DNA of 64,000 nucleotides from Sandaracinus amylolyticus (GCF_000737325.1 NZ_CP011125.1:7130001-7194000); one strand, 5' to 3'. Numbered from the stretch's first letter, positions 37,614-51,382 are shown. Notes: generated by a model from the letters alone, not told the origin. Made by a program: numbers and translations.

Positions 37614-38867
37614 TCACTCGAGCGCGCCGCCCTGGATCCAGCGCGCGATGAGCGAGATCTGCGCCTCGTCGAGCGGCGCGACCATACCGCGCGGCATGCG
37701 GCTGCCGCAGAGGTCGACGTTCGCGACCTTGCGCCAGAGCAGGCTGCGCGCCGAGTCGCCCGGCACGACCAGCGTGTTCACGCCGGCACCGCACCCCGCG
37801 GTCACGCCGACCATCGTCGTGTACGCGAGCGCCTGCGTCGAGAGATCGAGCCGTCCGCTGCGCGGCGTGTTCGTGATGTGGCAGGGCCCGCAGCGCGTGG
37901 CGATCACGGTCGTGTAGACCTCGGTGAACGTCGGCGCGGTCGCGCAGCCCGCGGTCGTGTCGCAGTACGAGCCGGTGCCGCACGTCGTGTGCTGCTGCTG
38001 GTGCACGCAGCCCTCGAGCTGATCGCAGCGGTCCGCAGTGCACGCGACGCCGTCGTCGCAGCGGTCGTCGTGCGTCTGGTAGACGCAGCCGAGCCCGAGG
38101 TCGCAGCGCTCGCTCGTGCACTCGACGCCGTCGTCGCACGCGGCGTCGCTCAGCTCGACGACGCAGCGGCCTTCGACGCAGCGATCGATCGTGCAGGTGT
38201 ACGAGTCGGTCTCGGGGCAGGGCATCGCGTCGTTGCACTGCTCGACGAACGCATCGACCATCGGCGCGTCGGGCATCGGCGCATCGGACGGCATGCGCGC
38301 ATCGACGGGCGCATCGCGCGGAACGTGCGCATCGATCGGCACCTGCGCGTCGGGGCGCACGCCCGCGTCCATGCCTCCGCCGTCGAGCGCGAGCGACGCA
38401 TCGGGGGCAGGAGGCGGCTCGCCGCTCCAGTCGACGAGCTCGGAGGCCTCGATCGCGACGGGCCGGCAGCCGTGGTCTCCGCAGGTGCGATCGGCGCCGC
38501 AGAGCTGCCCGATGCAGTCCTCCCAGAGGTCCATGCGCAGCGCGACGGTGCGACCGCGCACGAAGCTGACGCGCGCGGTGCGGCGCAGGATCTCGACCTC
38601 GTCGCGCTCACCGACGACGACGACCTCGAGCGTGCCCGAGCCCTGGCGCGACACGAGCCCGAGCGTGACCGGTCGCTCCGCGCCCCCGCCGAGATCGGCG
38701 AGCGCTTCCTGCGAGACGCCTTGTGGATCGCTCGCGGTGATCCGGATCGCGTCGATCCCTTCGGGCACGTCGAGATCGGTGTCGGTGACCACGACGATCT
38801 CGGTCAGGGGATCGGCCTCGCACGCGGCGATGGACAGGAACAGGAACGGAAGGAGCGAGCGTCTCAC
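37614..38867 (-). CDS. Cys-rich cytochrome-like lipoprotein
   Basis: 417 residues from the GTG at 38867, which overlaps the stop of the TPR gene (GTGA). Lipoprotein signal RRSLLPFLFLSIAAC. Residues about 25-150 form a beta-rich domain. An Asp/Ala/Pro-rich tether (about 170-210) follows, then three Cys-rich repeats (CIDRCVEGRC-type: TCTIDRCVEGRCVV, CDDGVECTSERCDLGLGC, CDDGVACTADRCDQLEGC). The C-terminus has a heme motif CGPCH with a late Met in RMPRGMVAPLDEAQ and the helix LIARWIQGGALE. It would sit on the cell surface as a one-heme electron carrier. Third in a kinase/TPR operon. Confidence 0.8.
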   Translation of the reverse strand: MRRSLLPFLFLSIAACEADPLTEIVVVTDTDLDVPEGIDAIRITASDPQGVSQEALADLGGGAERPVTLGLVSRQGSGTLEVVVVGERDEVEILRRTARVSFVRGRTVALRMDLWEDCIGQLCGADRTCGDHGCRPVAIEASELVDWSGEPPPAPDASLALDGGGMDAGVRPDAQVPIDAHVPRDAPVDARMPSDAPMPDAPMVDAFVEQCNDAMPCPETDSYTCTIDRCVEGRCVVELSDAACDDGVECTSERCDLGLGCVYQTHDDRCDDGVACTADRCDQLEGCVHQQQHTTCGTGSYCDTTAGCATAPTFTEVYTTVIATRCGPCHITNTPRSGRLDLSTQALAYTTMVGVTAGCGAGVNTLVVPGDSARSLLWRKVANVDLCGSRMPRGMVAPLDEAQISLIARWIQGGALE

Positions 38868-39697
38868 CACGTGAGCACCCCCGGCATCGTGTTGCCCATC
38901 ACGGGCTCGGGCGTCTGCGGCGACGTGAGCACGATCGCGGTCGCGGTGACCGCGCCCGCGACGACGAGACCGCCGACCACCGCGAGCGTGATCACGAGCG
39001 CGTCGTCGCCGCCGCCACCACCCTCGTCGCGGTCCACGGGATCGCGCTCGGCGGTCTCGAGCGCGGCGTCGGGCGCGCGGTCGCTCGAGGACGCGCGCGC
39101 CGGCGCGACGGTGAGCGCCTCGCGTGGCACCACGCGCGCCGGGATCGTCAGCGCGAGCTCGCGGCGCTCGGCGTCGCCGATCTCGATGCGCTCGCGCGCG
39201 ACGTCGGCGCCGTCGCGCGTGGCGCGGATCTCGTGCGCGCCGGGATCGATCGGCACCGGCACGCCGACCATCGCCTCGGGGAGCTCGCGCTCTCCGATGT
39301 GCACGCGAACGCCGCTCGGATCGCCGTCGAGGCGCACCGTGAGGCGCCCGACGCGGGGCGCGATCTGATCGCGCTGGCGCTCCGCGGACGCGCGCAGCTG
39401 CGGCGGGATCGTCGGGTCGCGAAGCACGCGCTCGAGGAGCTCGGCCGCCTCGACGAGCTGGCCTTCGTGCGCGAGCGCGGCGGCGAGGTTGTAGGCGATC
39501 GGCGCGGCGGGACGGAGCGCCTGCGCGCGCCGGAACCGATCGATCGCCGCGGTGTAGTCGCCGCGCCGCGCGAGGCCGACGCCTTCCTGGAAGAGCGCGC
39601 GCGCCGCAGCGCCGCGCGCAGGATCGGGATCCTGCGCGTGCGCCGAGGGCGCGAGGAGGAGCGTGGCGAGGAGTGCGAGGGTGGCGATGATCCGCAT
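38864..39697 (-). CDS. secreted TPR protein with PEGA-like domain and C-terminal TM
   Basis: 277 residues. Signal peptide ending LLAPSAHAQD. TPR region at about 25-110 (ARALFQEGVGLARRGDYTAAIDRFRRA, IAYNLAAALAHEGQLVEAAEL). A PEGA-like strand segment at about 115-185 (RLTVRLDGDPSGVRVHIGERELP, PGAHEIRATRDGADVA). After a charged linker, one membrane helix at about 237-260 (ALVITLAVVGGLVVAGAVTATAIVL). The start ATG overlaps the kinase stop (TGATG) and its stop overlaps the next GTG, so all three are translationally coupled. A common partner of myxobacterial kinases. Confidence 0.85.
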   Translation of the reverse strand: MRIIATLALLATLLLAPSAHAQDPDPARGAAARALFQEGVGLARRGDYTAAIDRFRRAQALRPAAPIAYNLAAALAHEGQLVEAAELLERVLRDPTIPPQLRASAERQRDQIAPRVGRLTVRLDGDPSGVRVHIGERELPEAMVGVPVPIDPGAHEIRATRDGADVARERIEIGDAERRELALTIPARVVPREALTVAPARASSSDRAPDAALETAERDPVDRDEGGGGGDDALVITLAVVGGLVVAGAVTATAIVLTSPQTPEPVMGNTMPGVLTW

Positions 39698-41277
39698 CAG
39701 AACCCCGGGTCGTCGAAGAACTCGCTCGACGCTTCGCTGCTGGCCTCGGCGCGCGGCGCGCGCGCGGCGGGACGCGCGGGGAACGAGCGCGCAGGACGCG
39801 CACGCGCGGGAGCCGGCGCTGCGGCGACGGGCTCGGGGGTCGCGGCGACGGGCTCGGCCGCAGGCGGCGTCTCGGGGATCGCGACCGGCGCGGGCGCCGT
39901 CGTGGCGGGCGGAGGCGCGGCGACGATCGGCGCGATGACGGGCGCAGGTGCGGTCGCGGCGGGCGCGCTCGCGCCGCGCGTCATCGCGAACATCGCGAGC
40001 GCACCGAGGAGGAGCGCGATCACGCCGGTCGCCGCGAGCGCGAGCGGACGCGCGCTCGATGGCGGCGGCGCTGCCGGCAGCTCGGGCGCGGTCGGCGTCG
40101 GCGGCGGCAGCAGCGGCATCGGCGGCGGGAGCTGCAGCGCGATCAGCTCCTGCTCGGGCGAGATGATCCACGCGACGACGTCGCGCGTCGTCTCGAGCTT
40201 CGGCGCGCGCCCGAAGTCGTCGCCGAGCAAGCGCGCGACGACCTCGGCGATCTTCGCCGACGTGACCGCGGTGCGTGTCTCGGCGAGCGTGCGCTCGAGG
40301 TCCTCCTGCATCGCGGCGGCGGTGCGATAGCGATCGCTCACGTCGCGCGCGAGCGCGCGCGTCAGCACGCGCTGGAGCGCCGGGGGGATCGTCGTCGGCC
40401 AGGGCGGCAGCGGCTCGCTCGTGATCGCGCGCATCGCGTCGAGGCTCTGCGCGCGCGCGAAGAGGCGCTGTCCCGTGAGCAGCTCGTGGAGGACGATGCC
40501 GAGCGAGAACACGTCGGAGCGCGCGTCGAACGACTGCCCGAGGCACTGCTCCGGCGAGAGATAGCCGGCCTTGCCGCGGATCGTGATGTGGCTGCTCTCG
40601 GCGATCTCGGTCGCGCGCTCCTTCGACGTCGACGCGACGCCGAAGTCGAGCAGCTTCACGGTGCCGTCGTACGCGACCATCACGTTGTGCGGCGAGACGT
40701 CCTGGTGGACGATCCCGAGCGCGCGTCCTTTGTCGTCGCGCGCGACGTGCGCCGAGTGGAGCGCCTCGGCGACGAGCGAGACGATCTTCACCGCGATCGG
40801 CGCCGGCATCGGCTTGCCCGCGCGGCGCGCGCGCGCGCTCAGGTCGCGCAGCGTGACGCCTTCGACGAGCTCCATCGCGAGGAACGGGTGCCCGCTCTCC
40901 ATGCCGAACCGGTACGTGTGGCAGACGTTCGGATGACGGAGACCGAGCGCGACCTTGCCTTCGCGCATGAACATCTCCTCGAAGTCGCGGTCGGCCGCGA
41001 GCTGCGGTCGGATGACCTTCAGCGCGATCTGTCGGACGCTGCCGGCCTGACCGTGCTCGCGCGCGAGGAACACCTCGGCCATGCCGCCGACGGCGATGCG
41101 TCCGAGGATCTCGTAGCCCGCGAAGCGGCGGAGGACCGGGAGCTCCGCGGCGATCTCCGCCGTGCTCCGCGGGACGTCGAATTCGACGTCGAGGATGGGC
41201 TCGCGGAGGCGTGGGCCCGATGCATCGTGCTCGCGCTCTTGGTCGCCGTTCGCAACGGCTGATGCGGGGCGGGACAT
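39697..41277 (-). CDS. membrane Ser/Thr kinase-like protein with HQD loop
   Basis: 526 residues. Kinase domain about 53-320: Gly loop IAVGGMAEVF (61-70), Lys87 (IALKVI), HQDVSPHNVM (191-200) in place of HRD, DFG (211-213), GYLSPEQ with SPE in place of APE. The catalytic Asp193 is kept, so activity is possible; the missing Arg removes the usual activation-loop control. One membrane helix near 420-440 and a Pro/Ala-rich outer tail of about 85 residues ending EFFDDPGF. First of three coupled genes. TACTTT lies 9 nt before the ATG with no Shine-Dalgarno. Confidence 0.9.
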   Translation of the reverse strand: MSRPASAVANGDQEREHDASGPRLREPILDVEFDVPRSTAEIAAELPVLRRFAGYEILGRIAVGGMAEVFLAREHGQAGSVRQIALKVIRPQLAADRDFEEMFMREGKVALGLRHPNVCHTYRFGMESGHPFLAMELVEGVTLRDLSARARRAGKPMPAPIAVKIVSLVAEALHSAHVARDDKGRALGIVHQDVSPHNVMVAYDGTVKLLDFGVASTSKERATEIAESSHITIRGKAGYLSPEQCLGQSFDARSDVFSLGIVLHELLTGQRLFARAQSLDAMRAITSEPLPPWPTTIPPALQRVLTRALARDVSDRYRTAAAMQEDLERTLAETRTAVTSAKIAEVVARLLGDDFGRAPKLETTRDVVAWIISPEQELIALQLPPPMPLLPPPTPTAPELPAAPPPSSARPLALAATGVIALLLGALAMFAMTRGASAPAATAPAPVIAPIVAAPPPATTAPAPVAIPETPPAAEPVAATPEPVAAAPAPARARPARSFPARPAARAPRAEASSEASSEFFDDPGF

Positions 41278-41429
41278 CGTGGAGTCAAAGTACTCGCGCT
41301 CCCGCGAGGCGTCCGTCGGGACGGATCCCGACACGGCGATCGGTCGAGCGATCTCGCGTCGATCCGCGTGCTCCTGCGGGCGCTTCGCTGGACGTCGGAC
41401 CACGTCGCGCGGCACGCTCCGCGCGCACG

Positions 41430-42920
41430 ATGTACCTGCGGCTCGATCGACTCTCCGACGCAGTGCGGAGCCGGCGCACGCGCTCGCTGATCCTGCTCGC
41501 CGCGTCGATCCCGCTCTGGCTCTTCGGGCTCGCGTCCTTCGGGATGATCGCGATGTGGGCCGTCGAGCCGACGCCGACGCCCGACTGGGGCGCCGCGAGC
41601 TTCTGCGCGACGTTCGGCGGCGCGATCCCGTGCCTCGGCGCGATCGCGCTGCTCTTCGCGCGGCATCGCTACGATCGAGGCACGCGCGCGCTGCAGGCGC
41701 TCTTCACCGAGGCGGGCTCCGACGGTCGTGTGGATCGCGCGGCGCTCGAGGCGCGCGGCTGGACGCGCGAGCGCGCGGACGCGGTGCTGCTCGACGCGCT
41801 CGCGCACGGGCTCTTGCGCGAGACCGCGAGCGCGACGCCGCAGCCGATCGGCGCGCAGGCGCTCGCGCCGGTCGCGGGACCGCCGCCGTTCGCGTGGCCG
41901 CAGCCACCGCCGTCTCCGTCACCGGTGCCCGCGAGCTCGCCGCCGTACGTCTCACCGGTCGCGCCGGGTGCGGTGATGTCTCCTCCGCCCGCGCCGTCGC
42001 CGCTGTACGAGCTCGCAGATCCCGTCGCGATGACGCGTGACGCGCGAGCGCGCGCGGCGACCGCATCGCCTGCGTCGAGCGCGCTCACGGGACGCGTGCT
42101 GAAGAGCACGTACCTCGTCGAAGAGCCGCTCGGACGAGGCGGCATGGGCGCGGTGTTCGCCGCGCGCCATCTGCGCACGGGCCGTCGCTACGCGGTGAAG
42201 ACGTTGCTGTCGACCGAGCGCTTCTCGCGCGAGGCGATCCTGCGTTTCGAGCGCGAGGCGCGCGCGGCGAGCGCGATCGGGCACAGCGGGATCGTCGGCG
42301 TGCACGACTTCGATCGCACCGACGACGGGATGCACTACCTCGTGATGGATCTGCTGAGCGGCGAGACTCTCGAGACGCGCCTCGGTCGCAGCGGGCGCCT
42401 CGCGTGGAGCGACGCGCGCCGCGTCGCGATCGAGCTCGGTGATGCGCTCGCAGCCGCGCATCGCGCGGGGATCCTCCATCGCGACCTGAAGCCCGCCAAC
42501 GTGTTCCTCGCGCACGTCGCGGGGCTCGGCGAGCGCGCGGTGCTCGTCGACTTCGGGCTCGCGAAGCCGATGGAGGAGAGCGCGGCGCAGCGCGTGACGA
42601 GCACCGGCGCGGTGGTCGGCACCGCGCTCTACATGTCGCCGGAGCAGGCGCGTGGCGCGCCGCTCGACGCGCGCAGCGACGTGTACGGTCTCGCCGCGGT
42701 GATCTACGAGATGGTCACCGGGGTGCCGCCGTTCCTCGGCCCGAACGCGCTCGCGGTGATGACGATGGTGATGGCCGAGCAGCCGGTGCCGCCGAGCATG
42801 CTCGCGCGCGGGCTCCCCGCAGCGGTCGATCACGCGCTGCTGCGCGCGCTCGCGAAGCACCCCGACCAGCGCCCGAGCGACGTCGCCTCGCTCGTCTCGA
42901 TGCTCGCCGCGATCGCGTAG
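41430..42920 (+). CDS. membrane-anchored Ser/Thr protein kinase
   Basis: 496 residues. Two membrane helices at about 20-47 (LILLAASIPLWLFGLASFGMIAMW) and 54-72, then a small helical domain (about 85-135) and a Pro-rich linker. The kinase domain follows (about 225-496): LGRGGMGAVFAARH, YAVKTLL (catalytic Lys), HRDLKPANVF, VDFGLAK, ALYMSPEQARG. All catalytic motifs are standard. The kinase is C-terminal to the membrane segment, the reverse of the common PknB layout. It is divergent from the HQD kinase and 147 bp ahead of the PQQ-VIT-VWA gene, so may be functionally linked to it. Confidence 0.92.
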   Translation: MYLRLDRLSDAVRSRRTRSLILLAASIPLWLFGLASFGMIAMWAVEPTPTPDWGAASFCATFGGAIPCLGAIALLFARHRYDRGTRALQALFTEAGSDGRVDRAALEARGWTRERADAVLLDALAHGLLRETASATPQPIGAQALAPVAGPPPFAWPQPPPSPSPVPASSPPYVSPVAPGAVMSPPPAPSPLYELADPVAMTRDARARAATASPASSALTGRVLKSTYLVEEPLGRGGMGAVFAARHLRTGRRYAVKTLLSTERFSREAILRFEREARAASAIGHSGIVGVHDFDRTDDGMHYLVMDLLSGETLETRLGRSGRLAWSDARRVAIELGDALAAAHRAGILHRDLKPANVFLAHVAGLGERAVLVDFGLAKPMEESAAQRVTSTGAVVGTALYMSPEQARGAPLDARSDVYGLAAVIYEMVTGVPPFLGPNALAVMTMVMAEQPVPPSMLARGLPAAVDHALLRALAKHPDQRPSDVASLVSMLAAIA

Positions 42921-43005
42921 ACGTGTCCGGCGGGCCGCACGGCGCGTGTCCGCGCCGACGCGCGGCAGCGCGAGCTTGCCGCGTGATCGCTCGGATCTAC
43001 GCGCG

Positions 43006-43020
43006 TGGCACGTGCGCTGC
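43006..43020 (+). promoter_or_regulatory. sigma-54-type promoter (-24/-12)
   Basis: TGGCACGTGCGCTGC with T next: GG at 43007-43008 and GC at 43019-43020 in correct register, one mismatch in the -12 box. Predicted start near 43032, 36 nt before the ATG, with GGGGAGGA in between. Two copies of CGTGTCCG (42922, 42945), 23 bp apart, lie about 85-110 bp upstream of the start and could be activator sites. Confidence 0.65.
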
Positions 43021-43067
43021 TGTCCGCCCGACGAGCGCGCACCTCGGCGTGCGCCGGGGAGGACACG

Positions 43068-46000
43068 ATGGTGCGTTTCGATCGGCGGGCCCGCGCGGCT
43101 CGGCCGCGACGGACGATGCTGCTCGCGTGGACGATCGGCGGGATCGCGCTGCTGCTCGATGGGTGCCCGACGCCCGCGAGCAACCCACGCGCGAGCACGA
43201 CCGCCGCGAGCGCACACGAGCACGATCACTTCGTCGCGATCGAGGGCCACACGCCGCGCGAGATCGATCACCAGGCGCTGATCCGCGACGCGCTCGCGGG
43301 CGTGCCCGAGACCGACGACGGATCGATCGAGCATCGCGTCCCGGTGCGGCGCATCGCGATCCCGCATCCGCCGCGTGGCGGCAACGCGCGCTTCGACTGG
43401 GGCGGTGGACGACGCGGCTGGATCACCGCGCTGCCGAGCGAAGAGCTGCTCACGTCGGCGGCGTACGCGAACGGGCGCGTGTTCCTCGGCGGCGGCTTTG
43501 CCAGCCATCGTTTCTTCGCGCTCGACGCGTACGACGGCGAGCTCGCGTGGTCCGTCGCCGCGCCCGACGGCGGACCGAGCGCTGCGATCGTCGCGAACGA
43601 TCGCGTGATCTTCAACACCGAGAGCTGCACGCTCTTCGTCGCCGACGCGGGCACGGGCGAGATCCGCTGGAGCCGCTGGCTCGGCGATCCCCTGATGAGC
43701 CAGCCTGCGGCCGCCGGCGGGCTCGTCGTGTCGGCGTATCCCGCGGACGGCGCCTACCGCTTCGGCGCGTTCCGCCTCGACGACGGCGAGCCGGTGTGGT
43801 CGACGGCGATCCCCGCCGACGTCATCCAGGCGCCGCAGATCGTCGGCGACTCGGTCTACTTCGCGACGATGGACGGCAGCGTGCTCGAGCTCGCGCTGCG
43901 GACCGGCGAGGTGCGCTGGTCGCGCGACGTCGGCGCGTCGAGCGCGGTGTGGGTCGATCGCGGATCGGTGCTGCTCGCGCGCCGTGTCGACATGCAGGAG
44001 CAGATCGTCGTGCTCTCCGCGCGCGACGGACGCGTCGCGCGCACGGGCGATCGGTTCGCCGCTCCGTACCTCTCGGGCCAGAGCCGCGATCGCGCGCTGG
44101 TGCACGCACAAGCGGGCGCGTGGGGCAACTTCCAGCACGGCGATCACCTCGGGCTGCGCAACGTCGCGGCGGGCTGGGCGTTCCAGGGATCGACGCCGAC
44201 GGTCGCCGACGGTCGTGCGTACTTCGCGATCGGTGATGCGATCCTCGCGCGCGCGATCGACACCGGCGAAGAGGTGTGGCGCCGCACGTATGCGCGCGCC
44301 GGAGGCGCGCAGGCGCTGAGCCCGCCGGCGATCGTCGGATCGCTGCTGGTGTTCGGCACCGTCGACGGTCAGCTCGTCGCGACCGACGTCGACACGGGCA
44401 TGACGATCTGGGCGTACGAGATCGGCGAGCCGATCGTGTTCCAGCCGATCGTCGCGCAGGGCTGGGTCTACGCGACCACCGCGCGAGGCAACGTGATCGG
44501 CCTCGAGGTCGGCGACGCGATGCTCGATGGCTGGCACATGTGGGGCGGCAACGAGCGCCACGCGGGCCCGGTCGAGACCGCGGGCACCGTCGATCCCGCG
44601 CTGCTCGCGAGCCTCGCGCGCCCGACGCGCGGGACGCTGCGCGCCGTCGCGCCCGCGGTCGCCGAGCCCGACGTCGATGGTGACGAAGGCGAGGTCGCGA
44701 GCGACGCGACGCCCGCCGCGATCCCGCCGCCCGCGCCCGAGCGCGATCTGCCGCTGCGCCGCACGTCGATCGACGCGCGCGTCTCGGGGTTCGTCGCCGA
44801 GGTCGAGGTCACTCAGGAGTTCGTCAACGACGGCGACGCGCCGATCGAGGCGGTCTATCTCTTCCCGCTGCCCGTCGACGCCGCGGTGGACGCGATGGAG
44901 ATGCGCATCGGCGAGCGCGTGGTCCGCGGGCGCATCCAGGGGCGCTCGCAGGCACGCCGCACCTACGAGGAAGCGCGCGCGACCGGACGGCGCGCGGCAT
45001 TGTTGGAGCAGCAACGACCCGACCTGTTCGCGCAGCGCGTCGCGAACCTCATGCCCGGTGATCGCATCGAGGTGCGCCTGCGCTTCGTGCAGCCGCTGCC
45101 CTTCGAGTCGGGTCGCTACGAATTCGCGTTCCCGCTCGCGGCGCCGCGCCGCTTCGATCCGAGCGATGCGAGCGCCGTCGCGCAGCAGCCCGAGGAGCCC
45201 GACGCGCGCGCCATCTCGATGTCGCTCGCGATCGACGCCGGCCTCCCGATCGGCACGATCGAGTCGCCGACCCACGACGTCGCGATCGAGCGCGGCGCGC
45301 GCCCGTCGATCGCGAGCGTGCGGCTCGAGGGCGAGCGGGTCCCGAACCGCGACTTCGTGCTGCGCTACACGCTGGGCGGCGACGCGCCGCGCGCGACGGT
45401 GCTCGCACATCGCGGCGCGGAGGAAGGCTGGCTCACGCTGCTCGTGCAGCCGCCCGACGCGCCTGCCGACGAGACGATCGCGCCGCGTGATCTCGTGTTC
45501 GTCGTCGACGCGTCGAGCTCGATGCGCGGCCGTCCGAGCGAGCAGGCGCGCGCGCTGGTGCATCGTGCGATCGGCGCGCTCCGCGCGGGCGACACCGTCG
45601 ACGTGATCGGCTTCGCGGATCGTGTGGTGCGGATGGGCGAGCACGCCGCGGGTGATGCCGACGCGACGGCGCGCGCGGACGAGTTCCTCGCGCAGCTGCG
45701 CACCGTCGGCGCGACGCGCATGGTCCCGGCGATCGAGGAGGCGCTCGATCGTGCGAACGCCGCGAGCGTGCGTGCGCCCGGCCGCGTGCCGCTCGTGGTG
45801 CTCGTCACCGACGGCTACATCGCGAACGAAGCGGAGGTGCTCCGCGCGATCGCGACGCACCTCGGCGCGAGCCGCGTGTACGCGCTCGGCGTGGGGAGCT
45901 CGCCGAACCGGTTCCTGCTCGAGCGCAGCGCGGAGGTCGGGCGCGGTCGCGCGCTGATCACGACGCTCGGCGAGGACGCGGCGCGCGCAGCCGATCGCTT

Positions 46001-47042
46001 CCACGCGTGGATCGATCGTCCGGTGTTCACCGACGTCGAGATCGACTGGGGCGGGCTCGACGTGCAGGACGTCCATCCGACGCGCGTCCCCGATCTCTTC
46101 GCGGACCGCCCGGTGGTCGTGAACGCGCGCTTCGTGCGCGGCGGGCGCGCGACGGTGCGCGTGCGCGGATCGGTGAACGGCCGTCGCCACGAGCGCGCGA
46201 TCGACGTGACGCTTCCGAGCGAGCCCACGCCCGATGGTCCGCATGCATCGCAGGAGTCGCTCTGGGCGCGCGCGGCGATCGGGGATCGCATTCGTCGTCT
46301 CGAGGTGCGCGACGACGAGGATCTCGTGCGCGAGGTGACCGAGCTCGGCCTCGCGCACCACGTCGTGACGCCGTTCACCTCGTTCGTCGCGGTCGAGGAG
46401 ACGCCGGCCGAGCCGAGCGAAGGCGAGCCCGAGGCCGAGGTGCGCGCGACCGTGAGCCCGGCGCGCGCGCTGCCGGGCGACCCCGAGATCCGCATCCCCG
46501 CGCCGCCCGACGCGCGCGCGGTCACGGTGATCCTGCCGTTCGGCGAGACGATCGACGCGCGCTGGGAGCCCGCGATCGATCGCTGGACCGCTCGCTTCCT
46601 CATCCCGCGCGACGCCGCCGAGGGCACGTTCCCGATCGAGATCCTCGTCACGCACGCGGACGGGCACGCGGAGGAGCTGCGCGTCTTCTACACCGTCGAC
46701 GCGAGCGCGCCCGAGGTGGCGATCGAGCTCGACGGCGAGGCGCGCCCCGGCGCGACGATCACGGTGCGCGCGCGGCAGGTGATCACCGAGGCGGATCTCG
46801 CGCAGGTGGGACGGCGCGCGATCGATCCGCAGCGCGCGCAGCTCCTCGCCGACGTGCGGCGCGTCGAGGTGCGCGCGCCCGGCGGTGCTCCGGTCGCGCT
46901 CGTGCTCACCGGACCCGGCACGTGGGAGGGCGCGCTGCGCGTGCCCGACGACGCCGAGGGCACGATGACGCTCGAGCTGTTCGTCGCGGACCTCGCCGCG
47001 AACGTGTCGACGCGGCGCGTGCCGGTGGAGATCGCGCGATGA
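43068..47042 (+). CDS. lipoprotein with PQQ-type propeller, VIT and VWA domains
   Basis: 1324 residues. Start ATG 43068 has GGGGAGGA upstream. Lipoprotein signal TIGGIALLLDGC. A PQQ-like beta-propeller spans about 110-490 (GRVFLGGGFASHRFFALDAYDGELAW, DSVYFATMDGSVLELALRTGEVRWS, each a Trp-ending blade). A VIT domain at about 560-690 has EVTQEFVNDGDAPIEAVYLFPLP and RRTYEEARATGRRAALLEQ. A VWA domain at about 805-985 has an intact MIDAS start VVDASSSM (Asp814, Ser816, Ser818) and VTDGYIAN. A beta-rich tail follows. VIT plus VWA is the inter-alpha-trypsin-inhibitor arrangement. It should bind a protein ligand through a metal, on the cell surface. Its stop overlaps the next ATG. Confidence 0.88.
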   Translation: MVRFDRRARAARPRRTMLLAWTIGGIALLLDGCPTPASNPRASTTAASAHEHDHFVAIEGHTPREIDHQALIRDALAGVPETDDGSIEHRVPVRRIAIPHPPRGGNARFDWGGGRRGWITALPSEELLTSAAYANGRVFLGGGFASHRFFALDAYDGELAWSVAAPDGGPSAAIVANDRVIFNTESCTLFVADAGTGEIRWSRWLGDPLMSQPAAAGGLVVSAYPADGAYRFGAFRLDDGEPVWSTAIPADVIQAPQIVGDSVYFATMDGSVLELALRTGEVRWSRDVGASSAVWVDRGSVLLARRVDMQEQIVVLSARDGRVARTGDRFAAPYLSGQSRDRALVHAQAGAWGNFQHGDHLGLRNVAAGWAFQGSTPTVADGRAYFAIGDAILARAIDTGEEVWRRTYARAGGAQALSPPAIVGSLLVFGTVDGQLVATDVDTGMTIWAYEIGEPIVFQPIVAQGWVYATTARGNVIGLEVGDAMLDGWHMWGGNERHAGPVETAGTVDPALLASLARPTRGTLRAVAPAVAEPDVDGDEGEVASDATPAAIPPPAPERDLPLRRTSIDARVSGFVAEVEVTQEFVNDGDAPIEAVYLFPLPVDAAVDAMEMRIGERVVRGRIQGRSQARRTYEEARATGRRAALLEQQRPDLFAQRVANLMPGDRIEVRLRFVQPLPFESGRYEFAFPLAAPRRFDPSDASAVAQQPEEPDARAISMSLAIDAGLPIGTIESPTHDVAIERGARPSIASVRLEGERVPNRDFVLRYTLGGDAPRATVLAHRGAEEGWLTLLVQPPDAPADETIAPRDLVFVVDASSSMRGRPSEQARALVHRAIGALRAGDTVDVIGFADRVVRMGEHAAGDADATARADEFLAQLRTVGATRMVPAIEEALDRANAASVRAPGRVPLVVLVTDGYIANEAEVLRAIATHLGASRVYALGVGSSPNRFLLERSAEVGRGRALITTLGEDAARAADRFHAWIDRPVFTDVEIDWGGLDVQDVHPTRVPDLFADRPVVVNARFVRGGRATVRVRGSVNGRRHERAIDVTLPSEPTPDGPHASQESLWARAAIGDRIRRLEVRDDEDLVREVTELGLAHHVVTPFTSFVAVEETPAEPSEGEPEAEVRATVSPARALPGDPEIRIPAPPDARAVTVILPFGETIDARWEPAIDRWTARFLIPRDAAEGTFPIEILVTHADGHAEELRVFYTVDASAPEVAIELDGEARPGATITVRARQVITEADLAQVGRRAIDPQRAQLLADVRRVEVRAPGGAPVALVLTGPGTWEGALRVPDDAEGTMTLELFVADLAANVSTRRVPVEIAR

Positions 47043-48838
47043 GGCTCGTCGTCGTCGTCGCCGTGCTCGCGCTCGCATGCGTCGCGCGCGCGCAGCCGCG
47101 GCTCGAGGTGGTCGAGACGATCGGCGCGACGGGCGACGTCCACGACGTCGCGGTGATGCCCGACGGACGCGTGCTCGCCGCGACGTCGGGGGGGCTCGTC
47201 GTGATCGAAGGCGGGCGCGTGGCGCGCACGATCACGAGCGCGGACGGCCTGCCGGGCACGCGCCTCCGCGCGCTCGACGTGATCGACGGTGCGATCTGGG
47301 CGGCGTCGATCGAGGGCGTCGCCGAGCTCGACGGCGCGCTGAGCGTGACGCGCACGATCGCGATCGCGCGCGCGCGCCGCGTCGTCCGCGCGCACGGCGC
47401 GCTCTGGATCGCGACCTACGGGGACGGGCTCTTCCGTGTGCGCGACGGCGCGCCCGAGCCGGTGACGCTCGGCAGCGATCCGGCCTACGCACGACAGACC
47501 GACGCGCTCGCGCGACCCGATGGGCTGTGGATCGCGACCGCGGGGCGCGGAGTGGTGCGGCTCGACGCGAACGGCGTGATCCGCGGGCGTATCCGCCAGG
47601 CGCAGGGCCTATCCCACGATCTCGTGTGGGACCTCGAGCCCGACGGAGACGACGTGCTCGTGGCGACGCTCGCCGGCGTGTCGCGTGTGACGGCGGACGG
47701 AGCGATCACGGCGCGCGCCGACGAGACGCGCGCGGCGCAGCGGCTCGCGGTGCGTGACGTTCGGACGATTCGTCGCGCTGGTGCTCGCACGATCGTCGCG
47801 AGCTGGGGCGGTGGCGTCGCGGAGCTCGACGGCTCGCGCGCGCGTCCGGTCCGAGGCGCGTCGACGCGCGCACGCGCGGTCGTCGCGCAGGGCGACCTCA
47901 CGTGGATCGCCGACGACGCGGGCCTGACGCGCGTCGAGCGCGGTGTCGCGCAGCGCGTGCTCGGTGGCGGGCTGCCCAGCGCGGATCTCACCGCGCTGGC
48001 GCGCTTCGAGGGCGCGATCTGGATCGGCACGTTCGATCGCGGCCTCGCGCGGATGGACGCGAGCGGACGCATCGAGCCGGTGCGCGTCGCGATCGATCGC
48101 TGGCGCGTCGATCCGCGCATCAACGATCTCGCGGTGACGCGGGGCGCGGAGGGCGCGCGCCTGTGGATCGCGACCGACCGTGGGCTGTTCGTGCACGACG
48201 GTCGCCGCTTCGTGCCGATCGACGATCCCGAGGGCCCGGGCGATGGGCACGTGACCGCGCTGCACGTCGATCGACACGGCGCGCTCTGGGCTGCGACCTC
48301 GCGCGTGCTCGCGCGCCGCGACGGTGATCGCTGGCAGCGGTGGAGCGGTGACGACGCGATGCCGATCGCACAGCTGCACGCGGTGACCACCGACGCGCGC
48401 GGGACGGTGTGGGTCGGGAGCCTCCACGGGCTCTTGCGCTTCGACCCGAGCACGGGTCGCTTCGCGCGCGAGTCGGTGGCGACCGGTGCGCTGCCGGTCG
48501 ACTGGGTGACCGCGGTCGCGCCGTGGCGCGGCGGGCTGCTCGCGGGCACCTATCACGGCGGGCTCGTGACCCACACGAGCGGGCGCTTCGTGATCGAGCG
48601 CGAGGGCGCGACGCTGCCCTGTGGATGGATCAACCCCCACGCGATCGAGACGCGCGGCGAGCGCGCGTGGGTGGGCACGCTCGAGGGCGGTCTGCTCGTC
48701 GGCGCGCCCGGCGCGTGGTCGCGTATCGGGCGCGACGAGGGCATGCCGGGCGACGACGTGACCGACGTGCTCGCGATCGACGAGCACGAGGCGTGGATCG
48801 CGACGCGTGCGGGGCTCGCGCGCGTGCGCGTCGAGTGA
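47039..48838 (+). CDS. secreted two-component-regulator-type beta-propeller
   Basis: 599 residues. Signal peptide ending ACVARAQ. About a dozen repeats of the sensor-propeller type (Reg_prop): GRVLAATSGGLVVIE, GALWIATYGDGLFRV, GLWIATAGRGVVRLD, GAIWIGTFDRGLARMD, GTVWVGSLHGLLRFDPSTG, RAWVGTLEGGLLVG, AWIATRAGLARV. In hybrid two-component systems such propellers are the periplasmic sensor of a histidine kinase; here the protein ends with the propeller, with no membrane helix or kinase, so it is a stand-alone secreted version. The ATG overlaps the stop of the VWA gene (ATGA). The two are likely co-translated and may bind each other. Confidence 0.88.
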   Translation: MRLVVVVAVLALACVARAQPRLEVVETIGATGDVHDVAVMPDGRVLAATSGGLVVIEGGRVARTITSADGLPGTRLRALDVIDGAIWAASIEGVAELDGALSVTRTIAIARARRVVRAHGALWIATYGDGLFRVRDGAPEPVTLGSDPAYARQTDALARPDGLWIATAGRGVVRLDANGVIRGRIRQAQGLSHDLVWDLEPDGDDVLVATLAGVSRVTADGAITARADETRAAQRLAVRDVRTIRRAGARTIVASWGGGVAELDGSRARPVRGASTRARAVVAQGDLTWIADDAGLTRVERGVAQRVLGGGLPSADLTALARFEGAIWIGTFDRGLARMDASGRIEPVRVAIDRWRVDPRINDLAVTRGAEGARLWIATDRGLFVHDGRRFVPIDDPEGPGDGHVTALHVDRHGALWAATSRVLARRDGDRWQRWSGDDAMPIAQLHAVTTDARGTVWVGSLHGLLRFDPSTGRFARESVATGALPVDWVTAVAPWRGGLLAGTYHGGLVTHTSGRFVIEREGATLPCGWINPHAIETRGERAWVGTLEGGLLVGAPGAWSRIGRDEGMPGDDVTDVLAIDEHEAWIATRAGLARVRVE

Positions 48839-51382
48839 TCAGCCGCGCACCACCGGCACCTGCGCGTCGAGCAGATAACCCTCTTCCACCGTCTTCACGA
48901 CGTCGCGCAGGCCCATCTTGCGCAGCGTGGAGATCGCGACGCGCACGCGGTGCGCGCCCGCATCGGCGCGCATCTTCTCGCCCGGCCAGCCCGCTTCGAT
49001 CAGCACGTCCCACGAGACCGCGCGCCCCGGCGCGCTCGCGTGCTCGAGCGCGAGCCGATCGAGGATGCGCCGCAGCGGCTTGCGCGTCGCGAGCTCTACG
49101 CGCGCTCCATCGCCGACGCGGAACCACGAGCCCGCATCGCCGATCCGGAGCGCGTCCGCGCGCTCCGGAGGCTGCGATCGTGCGCTCGGCGCGCGGAGCC
49201 GCGCGATCAACGTCATCGCGAGCGACGCCGACGCGTCGCGCTCGAGCGCCGAGCCGACGCTCGCCTCCACGGCGTCGACCAGCGTCCAGAGCGAGGCGTC
49301 GGTCGCGCTCGTGATCCGAGCCCTCGCCGCCACGAGGAGCGCGCGCGCCGCGGCGTCGCGACCGGCGAGCGTCTCGATGCGCGCGAGCACGCACGTGAAG
49401 AAGACCTCGAGCGCCGCGTCGCCGTCCTCCAGCGCCGCGCGAGCGCCTTGCACGAGCAGGCGCGCCTCCGCGCGATCACCGCGCTCCGCGTGGACCACGC
49501 CGAGCAGACCGGCGACGATCGCCTCGAGCGTCACGAAGCCACCGGTCGCGAGCTCCGCGATCGCGTCTCGATACGCCCTCTCCGCACCGTCGACGCGGCC
49601 CTCGAGGTGATCGGCGAGACCGCACAACGCTCGCGCGACCGCGTGCCCGCGACGATCGTGGAGCGCCCCCGCGAGCTCACGGGCGACCGCGAGGTGCGCG
49701 CGCGCATCGTCGAGGCGTCCGTCCGAGAGCTCCACGAGCGCGAGCCTTCGCCGGATCGTGCCCTCGAGCTGGACGGAGCGGCCCGCACGCGCCCGCGCGC
49801 GCTCGAGCGCGTCACGCGTCGCCTCGCGATCACCGCGTGCCCGACCGAGCGCTGCGCGCGCGATCCACCCTCGCGCCGCGGCGCCGGGATCGCCGATCGC
49901 GATCGCACGATCGATCGCGGACGAAGCGCGCTCGAGGTCTCCGCGCTGCGCCGCGATGCGCGAGACCGCGAGCAGCGCGTGCGCCTCGACGGCCGCATCG
50001 CCGGTGTGATGCGCGAGCACGAGCGCCTCACCGAGATCCCGCTCCGCGCCCGTCACGTCGCCTCGCTGTCGTCGCAGCGCGCCGCGCACCAGGAGGCCGC
50101 GCGCCTGCAGCCGCGGATCGGCGCCCGAGCCCGCCGTGACCTCGAGCGCGCGCTCGAGGTGTCGCGCGTAGAGCTCGAGCGGTCCGCGCACCGAGAGCAC
50201 CGGCGCGAGCGCGACCAATGCGCGCAGCGCGAGCTCCGCGATCCGCGCGCTCACCGTGCCGCGACCGAGGATGCGCTCCACCACCGCGAGCAGGTTCTCG
50301 CGCTCGAGCGCGAGCCGTGCGCGGGCCTCGTCGCCGTCGCGCGTCTCCACGCTCGCCGCCCAGAGCTCGGCCTGCTCGACGAAGTGCTTCGCGTGGCGCG
50401 CCTCGAGGTCGCGCGCGCCCTCACCGACGCCGCGCGTCGCGTACGCGCGCACGCTCTCGTACAGCGAGAGCCGCAGCTCGCCGTGCTCGATCGACTGCGC
50501 GCGGATCATCGACTTCGCGCGCAGCGCGGCGACCACGTCGATCACCGCAGGCGCGCCGGGCGCGCTCGTCACGACGACGGCCTCCGCCGCGTCGATCCCG
50601 AACCCACCGCGGAACACCGTGCACTGCGCGAGCACGTCGCGCTCCCAGGGCTCGAGGATCTCCCACGACCACGCGAGAGACGCCTCGAGCGCGCCGTGGC
50701 GCCCGCCCCTTCCGGGGCGTCGCAGGATCTCGAAGCGGCTCCGCAGCCGATGCAGCAGCGCGGCCGGTCCCATCACCGCGAGGCGCGCGGCGGCGAGCTC
50801 GATCGCGAGCGGCACGCGATCGAGCTCGCGCACGATCTCCGCGAGCACCCTCCGCTCGTCATCGCTCGGCGCGTAGCCGTGCCGCTGCGCGCGCGCCGCA
50901 TCGACGAACAGCGCGATCGCATCGTCGTCGGTCGCGAGAGGCCCGACCTCGTACGCGATCTCGCCCGCCATCTGGAGCCGCTCGCGCGAGACCGCGAGCA
51001 CCACGAGCTCGGGCGCCGCCGCGAGCCACTCCGCGATGCGCGCCGCCGCGCCGGGAACGCGATCGAGCGGATCGAGCACCAGGCGAAGCGGACCTCGCGC
51101 GGCGATCGCGCGCGCGGGCCACGACGTCCCGCGCGTCTTTCCGCCCGGTCCGGCGTCGAGCGACGACGCGACGACGTCCGCGAGCGCCTCGACGCTCGTC
51201 GCATCGTCGAGATCGCAGAGCACGACGTCGAGATCGCCTGCCGACACGCGCTGCGCGAGCGCGCTCTTCCCGATGCCGCCGAGGCCCGTGATCGTGACCA
51301 AGCGCTCGCCGCGGGCGAGCAACGCCTCGACCTCCGCGAGCTCGCGCGCGCGGCCCACGAACGCTTCGGAAGGAGGCGGCAT
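48839..51382 (-). CDS. STAND ATPase regulator: NB-ARC-like, TPR, winged helix
   Basis: 847 residues. P-loop GLGGIGKS (33-40) near the N-terminus, then Walker-B-like LRLVLDPLDRV and the LPLAIELAAARL-type helix (VPLAIELAAARLAVMG) of the AfsR/NB-ARC class. TPR-like helices fill about 340-690 (RRQRGDVTGAERDLGEALVLAHHTGD, ALERARARAGRSVQLEGTI). The last 90 residues are a winged-helix DNA-binding domain of OmpR type (AVSWDVLIEAGWPGEKM, VRVAISTLRKMGLRDVV, EEGYLLD), here at the C-terminus rather than the usual N-terminus. Likely an ATP-switched activator. It converges on the propeller gene with no gap, and is divergent from the TetR-regulated hydrolase. Confidence 0.87.
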   Translation of the reverse strand: MPPPSEAFVGRARELAEVEALLARGERLVTITGLGGIGKSALAQRVSAGDLDVVLCDLDDATSVEALADVVASSLDAGPGGKTRGTSWPARAIAARGPLRLVLDPLDRVPGAAARIAEWLAAAPELVVLAVSRERLQMAGEIAYEVGPLATDDDAIALFVDAARAQRHGYAPSDDERRVLAEIVRELDRVPLAIELAAARLAVMGPAALLHRLRSRFEILRRPGRGGRHGALEASLAWSWEILEPWERDVLAQCTVFRGGFGIDAAEAVVVTSAPGAPAVIDVVAALRAKSMIRAQSIEHGELRLSLYESVRAYATRGVGEGARDLEARHAKHFVEQAELWAASVETRDGDEARARLALERENLLAVVERILGRGTVSARIAELALRALVALAPVLSVRGPLELYARHLERALEVTAGSGADPRLQARGLLVRGALRRQRGDVTGAERDLGEALVLAHHTGDAAVEAHALLAVSRIAAQRGDLERASSAIDRAIAIGDPGAAARGWIARAALGRARGDREATRDALERARARAGRSVQLEGTIRRRLALVELSDGRLDDARAHLAVARELAGALHDRRGHAVARALCGLADHLEGRVDGAERAYRDAIAELATGGFVTLEAIVAGLLGVVHAERGDRAEARLLVQGARAALEDGDAALEVFFTCVLARIETLAGRDAAARALLVAARARITSATDASLWTLVDAVEASVGSALERDASASLAMTLIARLRAPSARSQPPERADALRIGDAGSWFRVGDGARVELATRKPLRRILDRLALEHASAPGRAVSWDVLIEAGWPGEKMRADAGAHRVRVAISTLRKMGLRDVVKTVEEGYLLDAQVPVVRG

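What the first reader, a model, noticed from the sequence alone, without database searches (positions are those of the whole stretch)
41430..51382. PQQ-propeller/VIT/VWA lipoprotein plus stand-alone sensor propeller, flanked by kinase and STAND regulator
A 1324-residue surface lipoprotein combining an enzyme-like propeller, a VIT domain and a VWA domain with an intact MIDAS is translationally coupled (ATGA) to a secreted Reg_prop propeller with no histidine kinase. A membrane Ser/Thr kinase precedes them and an NB-ARC/TPR/winged-helix regulator faces them. The order suggests a signalling or adhesion system not covered by standard types. That they form one system is inference from adjacency.
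Basis: partly seen in the sequence, partly recalled or inferred. Interest (0 to 1): 0.65.

Follow-up and report, generated by a model that had tools for sequence, protein, structure and literature searches.

The report
Obligate VIT-VWA and propeller protein pair
Two neighbouring genes in a soil myxobacterium encode exported proteins, one shaped like a human matrix-binding protein and one a double beta-propeller, that stay next to each other or fuse into one gene across a whole bacterial phylum, so they very probably work as one complex whose job is still unknown.

Summary
The genes are real and lie where stated, but the unit is two genes, not four. P0004 (43068-47042) is an exported BamB-like-propeller/VIT/VWA lipoprotein. 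P0005 (47039-48838) is a secreted stand-alone double Reg_prop propeller, with an ATGA overlap between the genes.

Whole-genome searches show that this pairing is the conserved feature. A distinct C-terminal domain of P0004 ('CTD', residues about 1130-1324, motif PGDPE) occurs in 67 Myxococcota genomes. In 64 of 67 testable loci a Reg_prop gene is next door or nearby (58) or fused into the same ORF (6 loci, 5 genomes). Of 21 VIT/VWA loci without a recognisable CTD, 1 has such a neighbour. The pair also occurs in two Acidobacteriota bins. The N-terminal propeller is optional.

The kinase and STAND regulator are kept only in one congener; kinases are not enriched near the pair.

AlphaFold plus Foldseek put the VIT-VWA part on human inter-alpha-inhibitor heavy chain 1 (integrin-beta-like) and P0005 on PorZ and Bacteroides HTCS sensors.

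Best reading: an exported complex in which the CTD holds the propeller protein, with a MIDAS and a propeller face as candidate ligand sites. The partnership is well supported; direct contact, ligand and role are inferred. I found no description of the module in the open-access library.

The parts
43068..47042 (+). P0004: exported lipoprotein, PQQ/BamB-like propeller - VIT - VWA/hybrid - CTD (1324 aa)
43068..43166 (+). signal peptide with lipobox ...ALLLDGC (Cys33); an alternative ATG lies at 43116
   Evidence: sequence; regular-expression scan only
43365..44627 (+). N-terminal PQQ_2/BamB-like beta-propeller, optional in the family
44757..45086 (+). VIT domain
   Evidence: 2.3e-33
45489..45953 (+). 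VWA domain with conserved MIDAS residues (DxSxS, D915)
46455..47039 (+). CTD: two predicted beta-sandwich domains, first with the PGDPE motif and no Pfam family, second Big_13-like; marks the VIT/VWA proteins that have a Reg_prop partner
47039..48838 (+). P0005: secreted stand-alone Reg_prop double propeller (599 aa, about 14 blades)
47969..48832 (+). propeller 2 of P0005, the better conserved half and the only half recognised in minimal forms; suggested docking half
41430..42920 (+). Ser/Thr kinase with apparent N-terminal membrane segments: neighbour, not part of the conserved unit
48839..51382 (-). STAND-like P-loop/TPR protein, convergent neighbour, not part of the conserved unit

Best explanation
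P0004 and P0005 are two subunits of one exported, envelope-associated complex. P0004 is a lipoprotein with an inter-alpha-inhibitor-heavy-chain-like (integrin-beta-like) VIT/hybrid/VWA body. Its C-terminal beta-sandwich pair (CTD) binds the secreted double propeller P0005, probably through propeller 2. The complex then offers a metal-dependent ligand site (MIDAS) and at least one propeller face to an extracellular or envelope ligand, most likely a polysaccharide or a matrix or surface protein. I take it to be an adhesion, matrix-organising or ligand-presenting complex. Shown here: co-inheritance, coupling and fusion of the genes, co-occurrence of the CTD with the partner, domain folds, MIDAS conservation. 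Inferred: direct contact, its site, the outer-membrane location, the ligand and the role.
For: Linkage, searched from the propeller side: 29 P0005-profile hits (E<1e-30) in 28 of 183 order genomes; 27 lie directly downstream of, or fused to, a VIT/VWA-type gene, one is nearby, one is at a contig edge. Searched from the CTD side: CTD hits in 33 of 183 order and 50 of 377 phylum genomes, 67 in all. Of 68 loci, 56 have a Reg_prop gene directly downstream, 2 upstream or nearby, 6 are single-ORF fusions (G172 twice, G227, G259, G392, G431), 1 ends at a contig edge, 3 have none. CTD-less VIT/VWA loci: 1 of 21 has a Reg_prop neighbour. The CTD first domain is the best conserved part of the protein (mean majority fraction 0.65, against 0.54 VIT and 0.47 VWA) in loci found through the propeller alone. 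In several minimal forms only propeller 2 is recognised, and it holds more near-invariant residues (27 against 11). Distance-matrix correlation of CTD with propeller 2 is 0.90-0.93, partial 0.53-0.60 after removing VIT/VWA/hybrid divergence. Folds: HC1 6fpy, Foldseek E 1e-31, VIA Z 26.9 over 514 residues; PorZ 5m11, TM 0.66, and BT4663. HC1 is integrin-beta-like, with MIDAS-dependent self-association and C3 binding (PMC7170535); PorZ binds an anionic LPS and the surface protein PorU (PMC8545088).
Against: No complex was modelled and no interaction measured. Three CTD loci have no Reg_prop neighbour: G298, G369 (phospholipase-D-like gene downstream) and G378 (kinase downstream). G042:C99 has a propeller partner but no CTD recognised by the independent profile. 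The lipobox is not found in all relatives by a crude scan (28 of 73 rows, duplicates and wrong starts included). In two fusions (L262, L263) no VWA is recognised, so the MIDAS is not universal. Genomes are not phylogenetically independent, and the set of unpaired controls is small.
Confidence: 0.55

Rival explanations
1. Envelope-biogenesis complex: the propellers bind outer-membrane proteins or LPS/polysaccharide in the periplasm or at the surface, as BamB and PorZ do, and the VIT-VWA protein is a chaperone or scaffold for assembling a surface structure rather than a ligand receptor.
For: N-terminal propeller closest to BamB; P0005 double propeller superposes well on PorZ, which delivers A-LPS to PorU (PMC8545088); many lineages add an upstream TPR-DUF2135 subunit; P0004 is related to TIGR03788.
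Against: The BamB-like propeller is absent from most pairs; no T9SS or Bam component was seen beside the pairs whose neighbours were examined; no sortase is recognised in the genome.
Confidence: 0.25
2. Four-gene signalling system: the secreted pair senses a ligand and passes it to the membrane kinase and the STAND regulator.
For: All four genes are kept together in the congener G002.
Against: Neither kinase nor STAND is conserved beside the pair in G007, G009, G025 or G043 in the same arrangement; STAND homologues near no other pair; kinases not enriched near pairs (22/580 against 5/156); the STAND gene is convergent.
Confidence: 0.04
3. The two products are functionally linked but do not touch: for example P0005 is an independent glycan-binding protein and P0004 an independent adhesin, kept in one operon for joint expression.
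For: Adjacency alone would allow it; a few unpaired CTD genes exist.
Against: Fusion into one ORF at six loci in three genome families, co-occurrence with one specific domain, and rare reversed gene order that keeps the neighbours together (L257, L165).
Confidence: 0.16

Closest known systems
Inter-alpha-inhibitor heavy chains (ITIH1/HC1, PDB 6fpy)
   Same: VIT beta-sandwich, integrin-like hybrid domain and VWA with MIDAS in the same order; Foldseek E 1e-31, VIA Z 26.9; sequence match to ITIH4 7e-21 and PARP4 4e-29
   Different: Bacterial lipoprotein; N-terminal BamB-like propeller; C-terminal CTD; co-encoded propeller partner
Marine proteobacterial sortase target protein (TIGR03788)
   Same: VIT-VWA core, 441 bits, best stretch over model positions 168-592
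   Different: Below the curated cut-off of 551.65; protein ends in the CTD, not a sorting signal; no sortase recognised in the genome
[quoted passage not shown]
   Same: Exported stand-alone double Reg_prop propeller; TM 0.66
   Different: P0005 lacks the C-terminal T9SS-like sandwich; NF052228 score 16 against a cut-off of 260
Bacteroides hybrid two-component sensors (BT4663, 4a2l)
   Same: Reg_prop propellers; profile E 2e-52
   Different: P0005 ends after the propellers: no membrane segment or histidine kinase
Dictyostelium Vwa1 (VIT/vWFA) with FbxwD (WD40 propeller), PMC10539598
   Same: A VIT/VWA protein physically associated with a propeller protein by co-IP
   Different: Cytoplasmic, ubiquitin-ligase context, eukaryotic; homology of the propellers not tested
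MoxR-vWA-beta-propeller ternary systems (Kaur et al. 2020, PMC7159879)
   Same: VWA and beta-propeller proteins encoded together, in bacteria with a multicellular habit
   Different: Here exported, no MoxR gene seen; VIT is not mentioned in that paper

Membership tests
VIT-VWA (ITIH-like) proteins | VIT followed by VWA above Pfam cut-offs, HC1-like fold | tested here: met
TIGR03788 marine sortase target | whole-protein score above the curated cut-off | tested here: not met
   441 against 551.65 bits
TIGR03788 marine sortase target | cognate sortase encoded in the genome | tested here: not met
   no PF04203 match in the 10.3-Mb genome
PorZ (T9SS) | score above NF052228 cut-off | tested here: not met
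   16.4 against 260 bits
PorZ (T9SS) | two beta-propellers in one exported chain | tested here: met
   AlphaFold pLDDT 94, 5m11 TM 0.66; export inferred from the signal sequence
HTCS / Reg_prop sensor kinase | histidine kinase in the same protein | tested here: not met
PQQ-dependent dehydrogenase (enzyme-like propeller) | best similarity to quinoprotein dehydrogenases and score above model cut-off | tested here: not met
   BamB best; TIGR03075 40 against 480 bits
BamB (Bam complex lipoprotein) | score above TIGR03300 cut-off | tested here: not met
   89.7 against 285.2 bits
Integrin-like heterodimer (VWA/hybrid subunit bound to a propeller subunit) | VWA docked on the partner propeller | not testable with these tools
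   no complex prediction available; the CTD rather than the VWA tracks the propeller partner

The most novel reading that the evidence does not exclude
A bacterial integrin-like headpiece: an ITIH/integrin-beta-like VWA-hybrid subunit and a propeller subunit form an obligate exported heterodimer that binds ligands in a metal-dependent, conformation-gated way, reached independently of animal integrins.
Probability: 0.08. Interest if true: 0.85.

Novelty: new variant of a known kind. Interest (0 to 1): 0.55.

Why it matters
VIT-VWA proteins occur from bacteria to humans, yet I found no described partner for the bacterial ones. A phylum-wide pair with a dedicated candidate docking domain and natural fusions gives a directly testable complex, a new marker domain (the PGDPE CTD) for annotating it, and a bacterial comparison for ITIH and integrin-type VWA proteins. 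It also corrects the grouping of the kinase and STAND genes with this locus.

Tried and rejected
Four-gene system: rejected on synteny. Enzymatic PQQ propeller: rejected. Sortase-anchored protein: rejected. MoxR-vWA-propeller ternary system: no MoxR gene found beside the pairs whose neighbours were scanned (one sigma-54 activator beside L055 has a weak bpMoxR match); the paper does not mention VIT. TPR-DUF2135 as a universal third subunit: found in 20 rows (18 distinct loci, plus L053) but never beside a PQQ-containing form, and absent from many others; only a weak DUF2135 match elsewhere in this genome. My notebook entry 3 counted 25 TPR loci; five of those belong to a separate VWA_4 family. 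Structure prediction of a natural fusion was not attempted because the tool's stated list of accepted sources does not name loci from the genome search. Literature: no paper in the open-access library joins 'regulator propeller' with 'VIT domain' or with 'von Willebrand' and 'myxobacteria'; most subscription journals are not covered. The CTD alone was not searched by fold, so its fold relatives are untested beyond sequence.

Full report
What is there. The window lies at 7,130,001-7,194,000 of a single 10,327,335-base contig. The size agrees with the 10.33-Mb genome of Sandaracinus amylolyticus DSM 53668 (PMC5010890); the exact number was not found in the paper, so the name is likely but not proven. 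P0004 (43068-47042) is 1324 aa: signal peptide with lipobox, a BamB-like propeller, VIT, VWA with conserved MIDAS residues, and a C-terminal region without a strong Pfam match. P0005 (47039-48838) is 599 aa, starts inside the P0004 stop (ATGA) and consists of Reg_prop repeats only.

The pair is conserved, the four genes are not. In 56 genomes searched, every genome with a P0005 homologue (12, own included) carries it beside a P0004-like VIT/VWA gene. The kinase and the STAND gene flank the pair in the same arrangement only in the congener G002; in G007, G009, G025 and G043 the neighbours differ. Near 71 pair loci, kinases are 22 of 580 genes, against 5 of 156 in the window plus control loci; STAND homologues appear nowhere but in the congener.

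A domain that predicts the partner. Comparing P0004 with its own-genome paralogue (47% identical, residues 24-1149 only) and others without a propeller neighbour shows that residues about 1130-1324 are present only in the paired proteins, where residues 1141-1200 stay near 50% identical even when VIT and VWA fall to about 20%. I call this the CTD. A profile of it (A2) found 33 of 183 order genomes and 50 of 377 phylum genomes, 67 distinct genomes and 68 loci. A Reg_prop gene lies directly downstream in 56, upstream or nearby in 2 (G460, G034), and in the same ORF in 6 (G172 twice, G227, G259, G392, G431); one locus ends at a contig edge (G042:C632) and three have no partner in reach (G298, G369, G378) (G408 confirmed). 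Of 21 VIT/VWA loci without a recognised CTD, only G042:C99 has a Reg_prop neighbour. These counts are not phylogenetically independent.

Wider spread and composition. A genome-contig scan with the propeller profile found the same pair in Enhygromyxa salina, a Kofleriaceae bin, a Vicinamibacteria bin and, in reversed order, a Blastocatellia bin; the last two are Acidobacteriota by title and could include misbinned contigs. The N-terminal propeller occurs only in about ten loci from relatives near Sandaracinus. Other lineages have a TPR-DUF2135 gene, mostly overlapping the VIT gene start (18 distinct loci plus L053), or a VWA_4-type gene there (5 loci), never together with the N-terminal propeller. 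In L262 the VIT-CTD-Reg_prop fusion shows no VWA while the upstream gene belongs to the VWA_4 cluster. Pfam was run on two of the VWA_4 genes only (L100, L242).

Structure. AlphaFold of residues 540-1324 has mean pLDDT 83.9, with strands in the CTD consistent with two beta-sandwich domains. Its VIT-VWA part matches human inter-alpha-inhibitor heavy chain 1 far above other chains (Foldseek E 1e-31; VIA Z 26.9, 514 residues, rmsd 5.0). HC1 was described as integrin-beta-like with a functional MIDAS (PMC7170535). P0005 (pLDDT 94.1) matches BT4663 (best E) and PorZ (best TM among the leading rows, 0.66). The second CTD domain resembles Big_13 Ig-like domains; the first has no family.

Where they may touch. 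The first CTD domain is the best conserved part of the protein in loci found through the propeller alone (0.65 against 0.54 VIT and 0.47 VWA). Propeller 2 is better conserved than propeller 1 (27 against 11 near-invariant positions; one-sided Mann-Whitney p about 2e-4), and the profile aligns only to propeller 2 in G146, G148 and G151. Distances of CTD and propeller 2 remain correlated after removing the divergence of the other domains (partial r 0.53-0.60), but the second CTD domain is as correlated with propeller 1 (0.58). I therefore suggest CTD-propeller 2 docking; this is inference.

Mechanism. The fusions, the coupling and the CTD-partner association make one complex the best reading. 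Its outer-membrane location, ligand and role are inferred from signal sequences, the MIDAS, HC1, PorZ and HTCS sensors. The main rival is an envelope-assembly role like BamB or PorZ.

Verdict.

Noticed in passing
L056 (G000:C1:505000-524900), match 513236-516520: Own-genome paralogue with propeller-VIT-VWA, 47% identical to P0004, but no CTD and no Reg_prop neighbour.
   Followed up: partly
window 39697-42920: Two Ser/Thr kinase genes head to head, 14 bases apart, kept in the congener G002.
   Followed up: no
L262:3390-6986 and L263:3-3560: VIT-CTD-Reg_prop fusions without a recognisable VWA; in L262 the gene directly upstream groups with VWA_4 proteins.
   Followed up: partly
L247:1143-5615: CTD gene with a Ser/Thr kinase directly downstream in place of the propeller partner.
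   Followed up: no
L260:1466-2884: CotH kinase gene 63 bases upstream of the VIT-VWA-CTD gene.
   Followed up: no
window 37617-38870: Protein with a weak, below-cut-off match to Dicty_CTDC slime-mould repeats.
   Followed up: no
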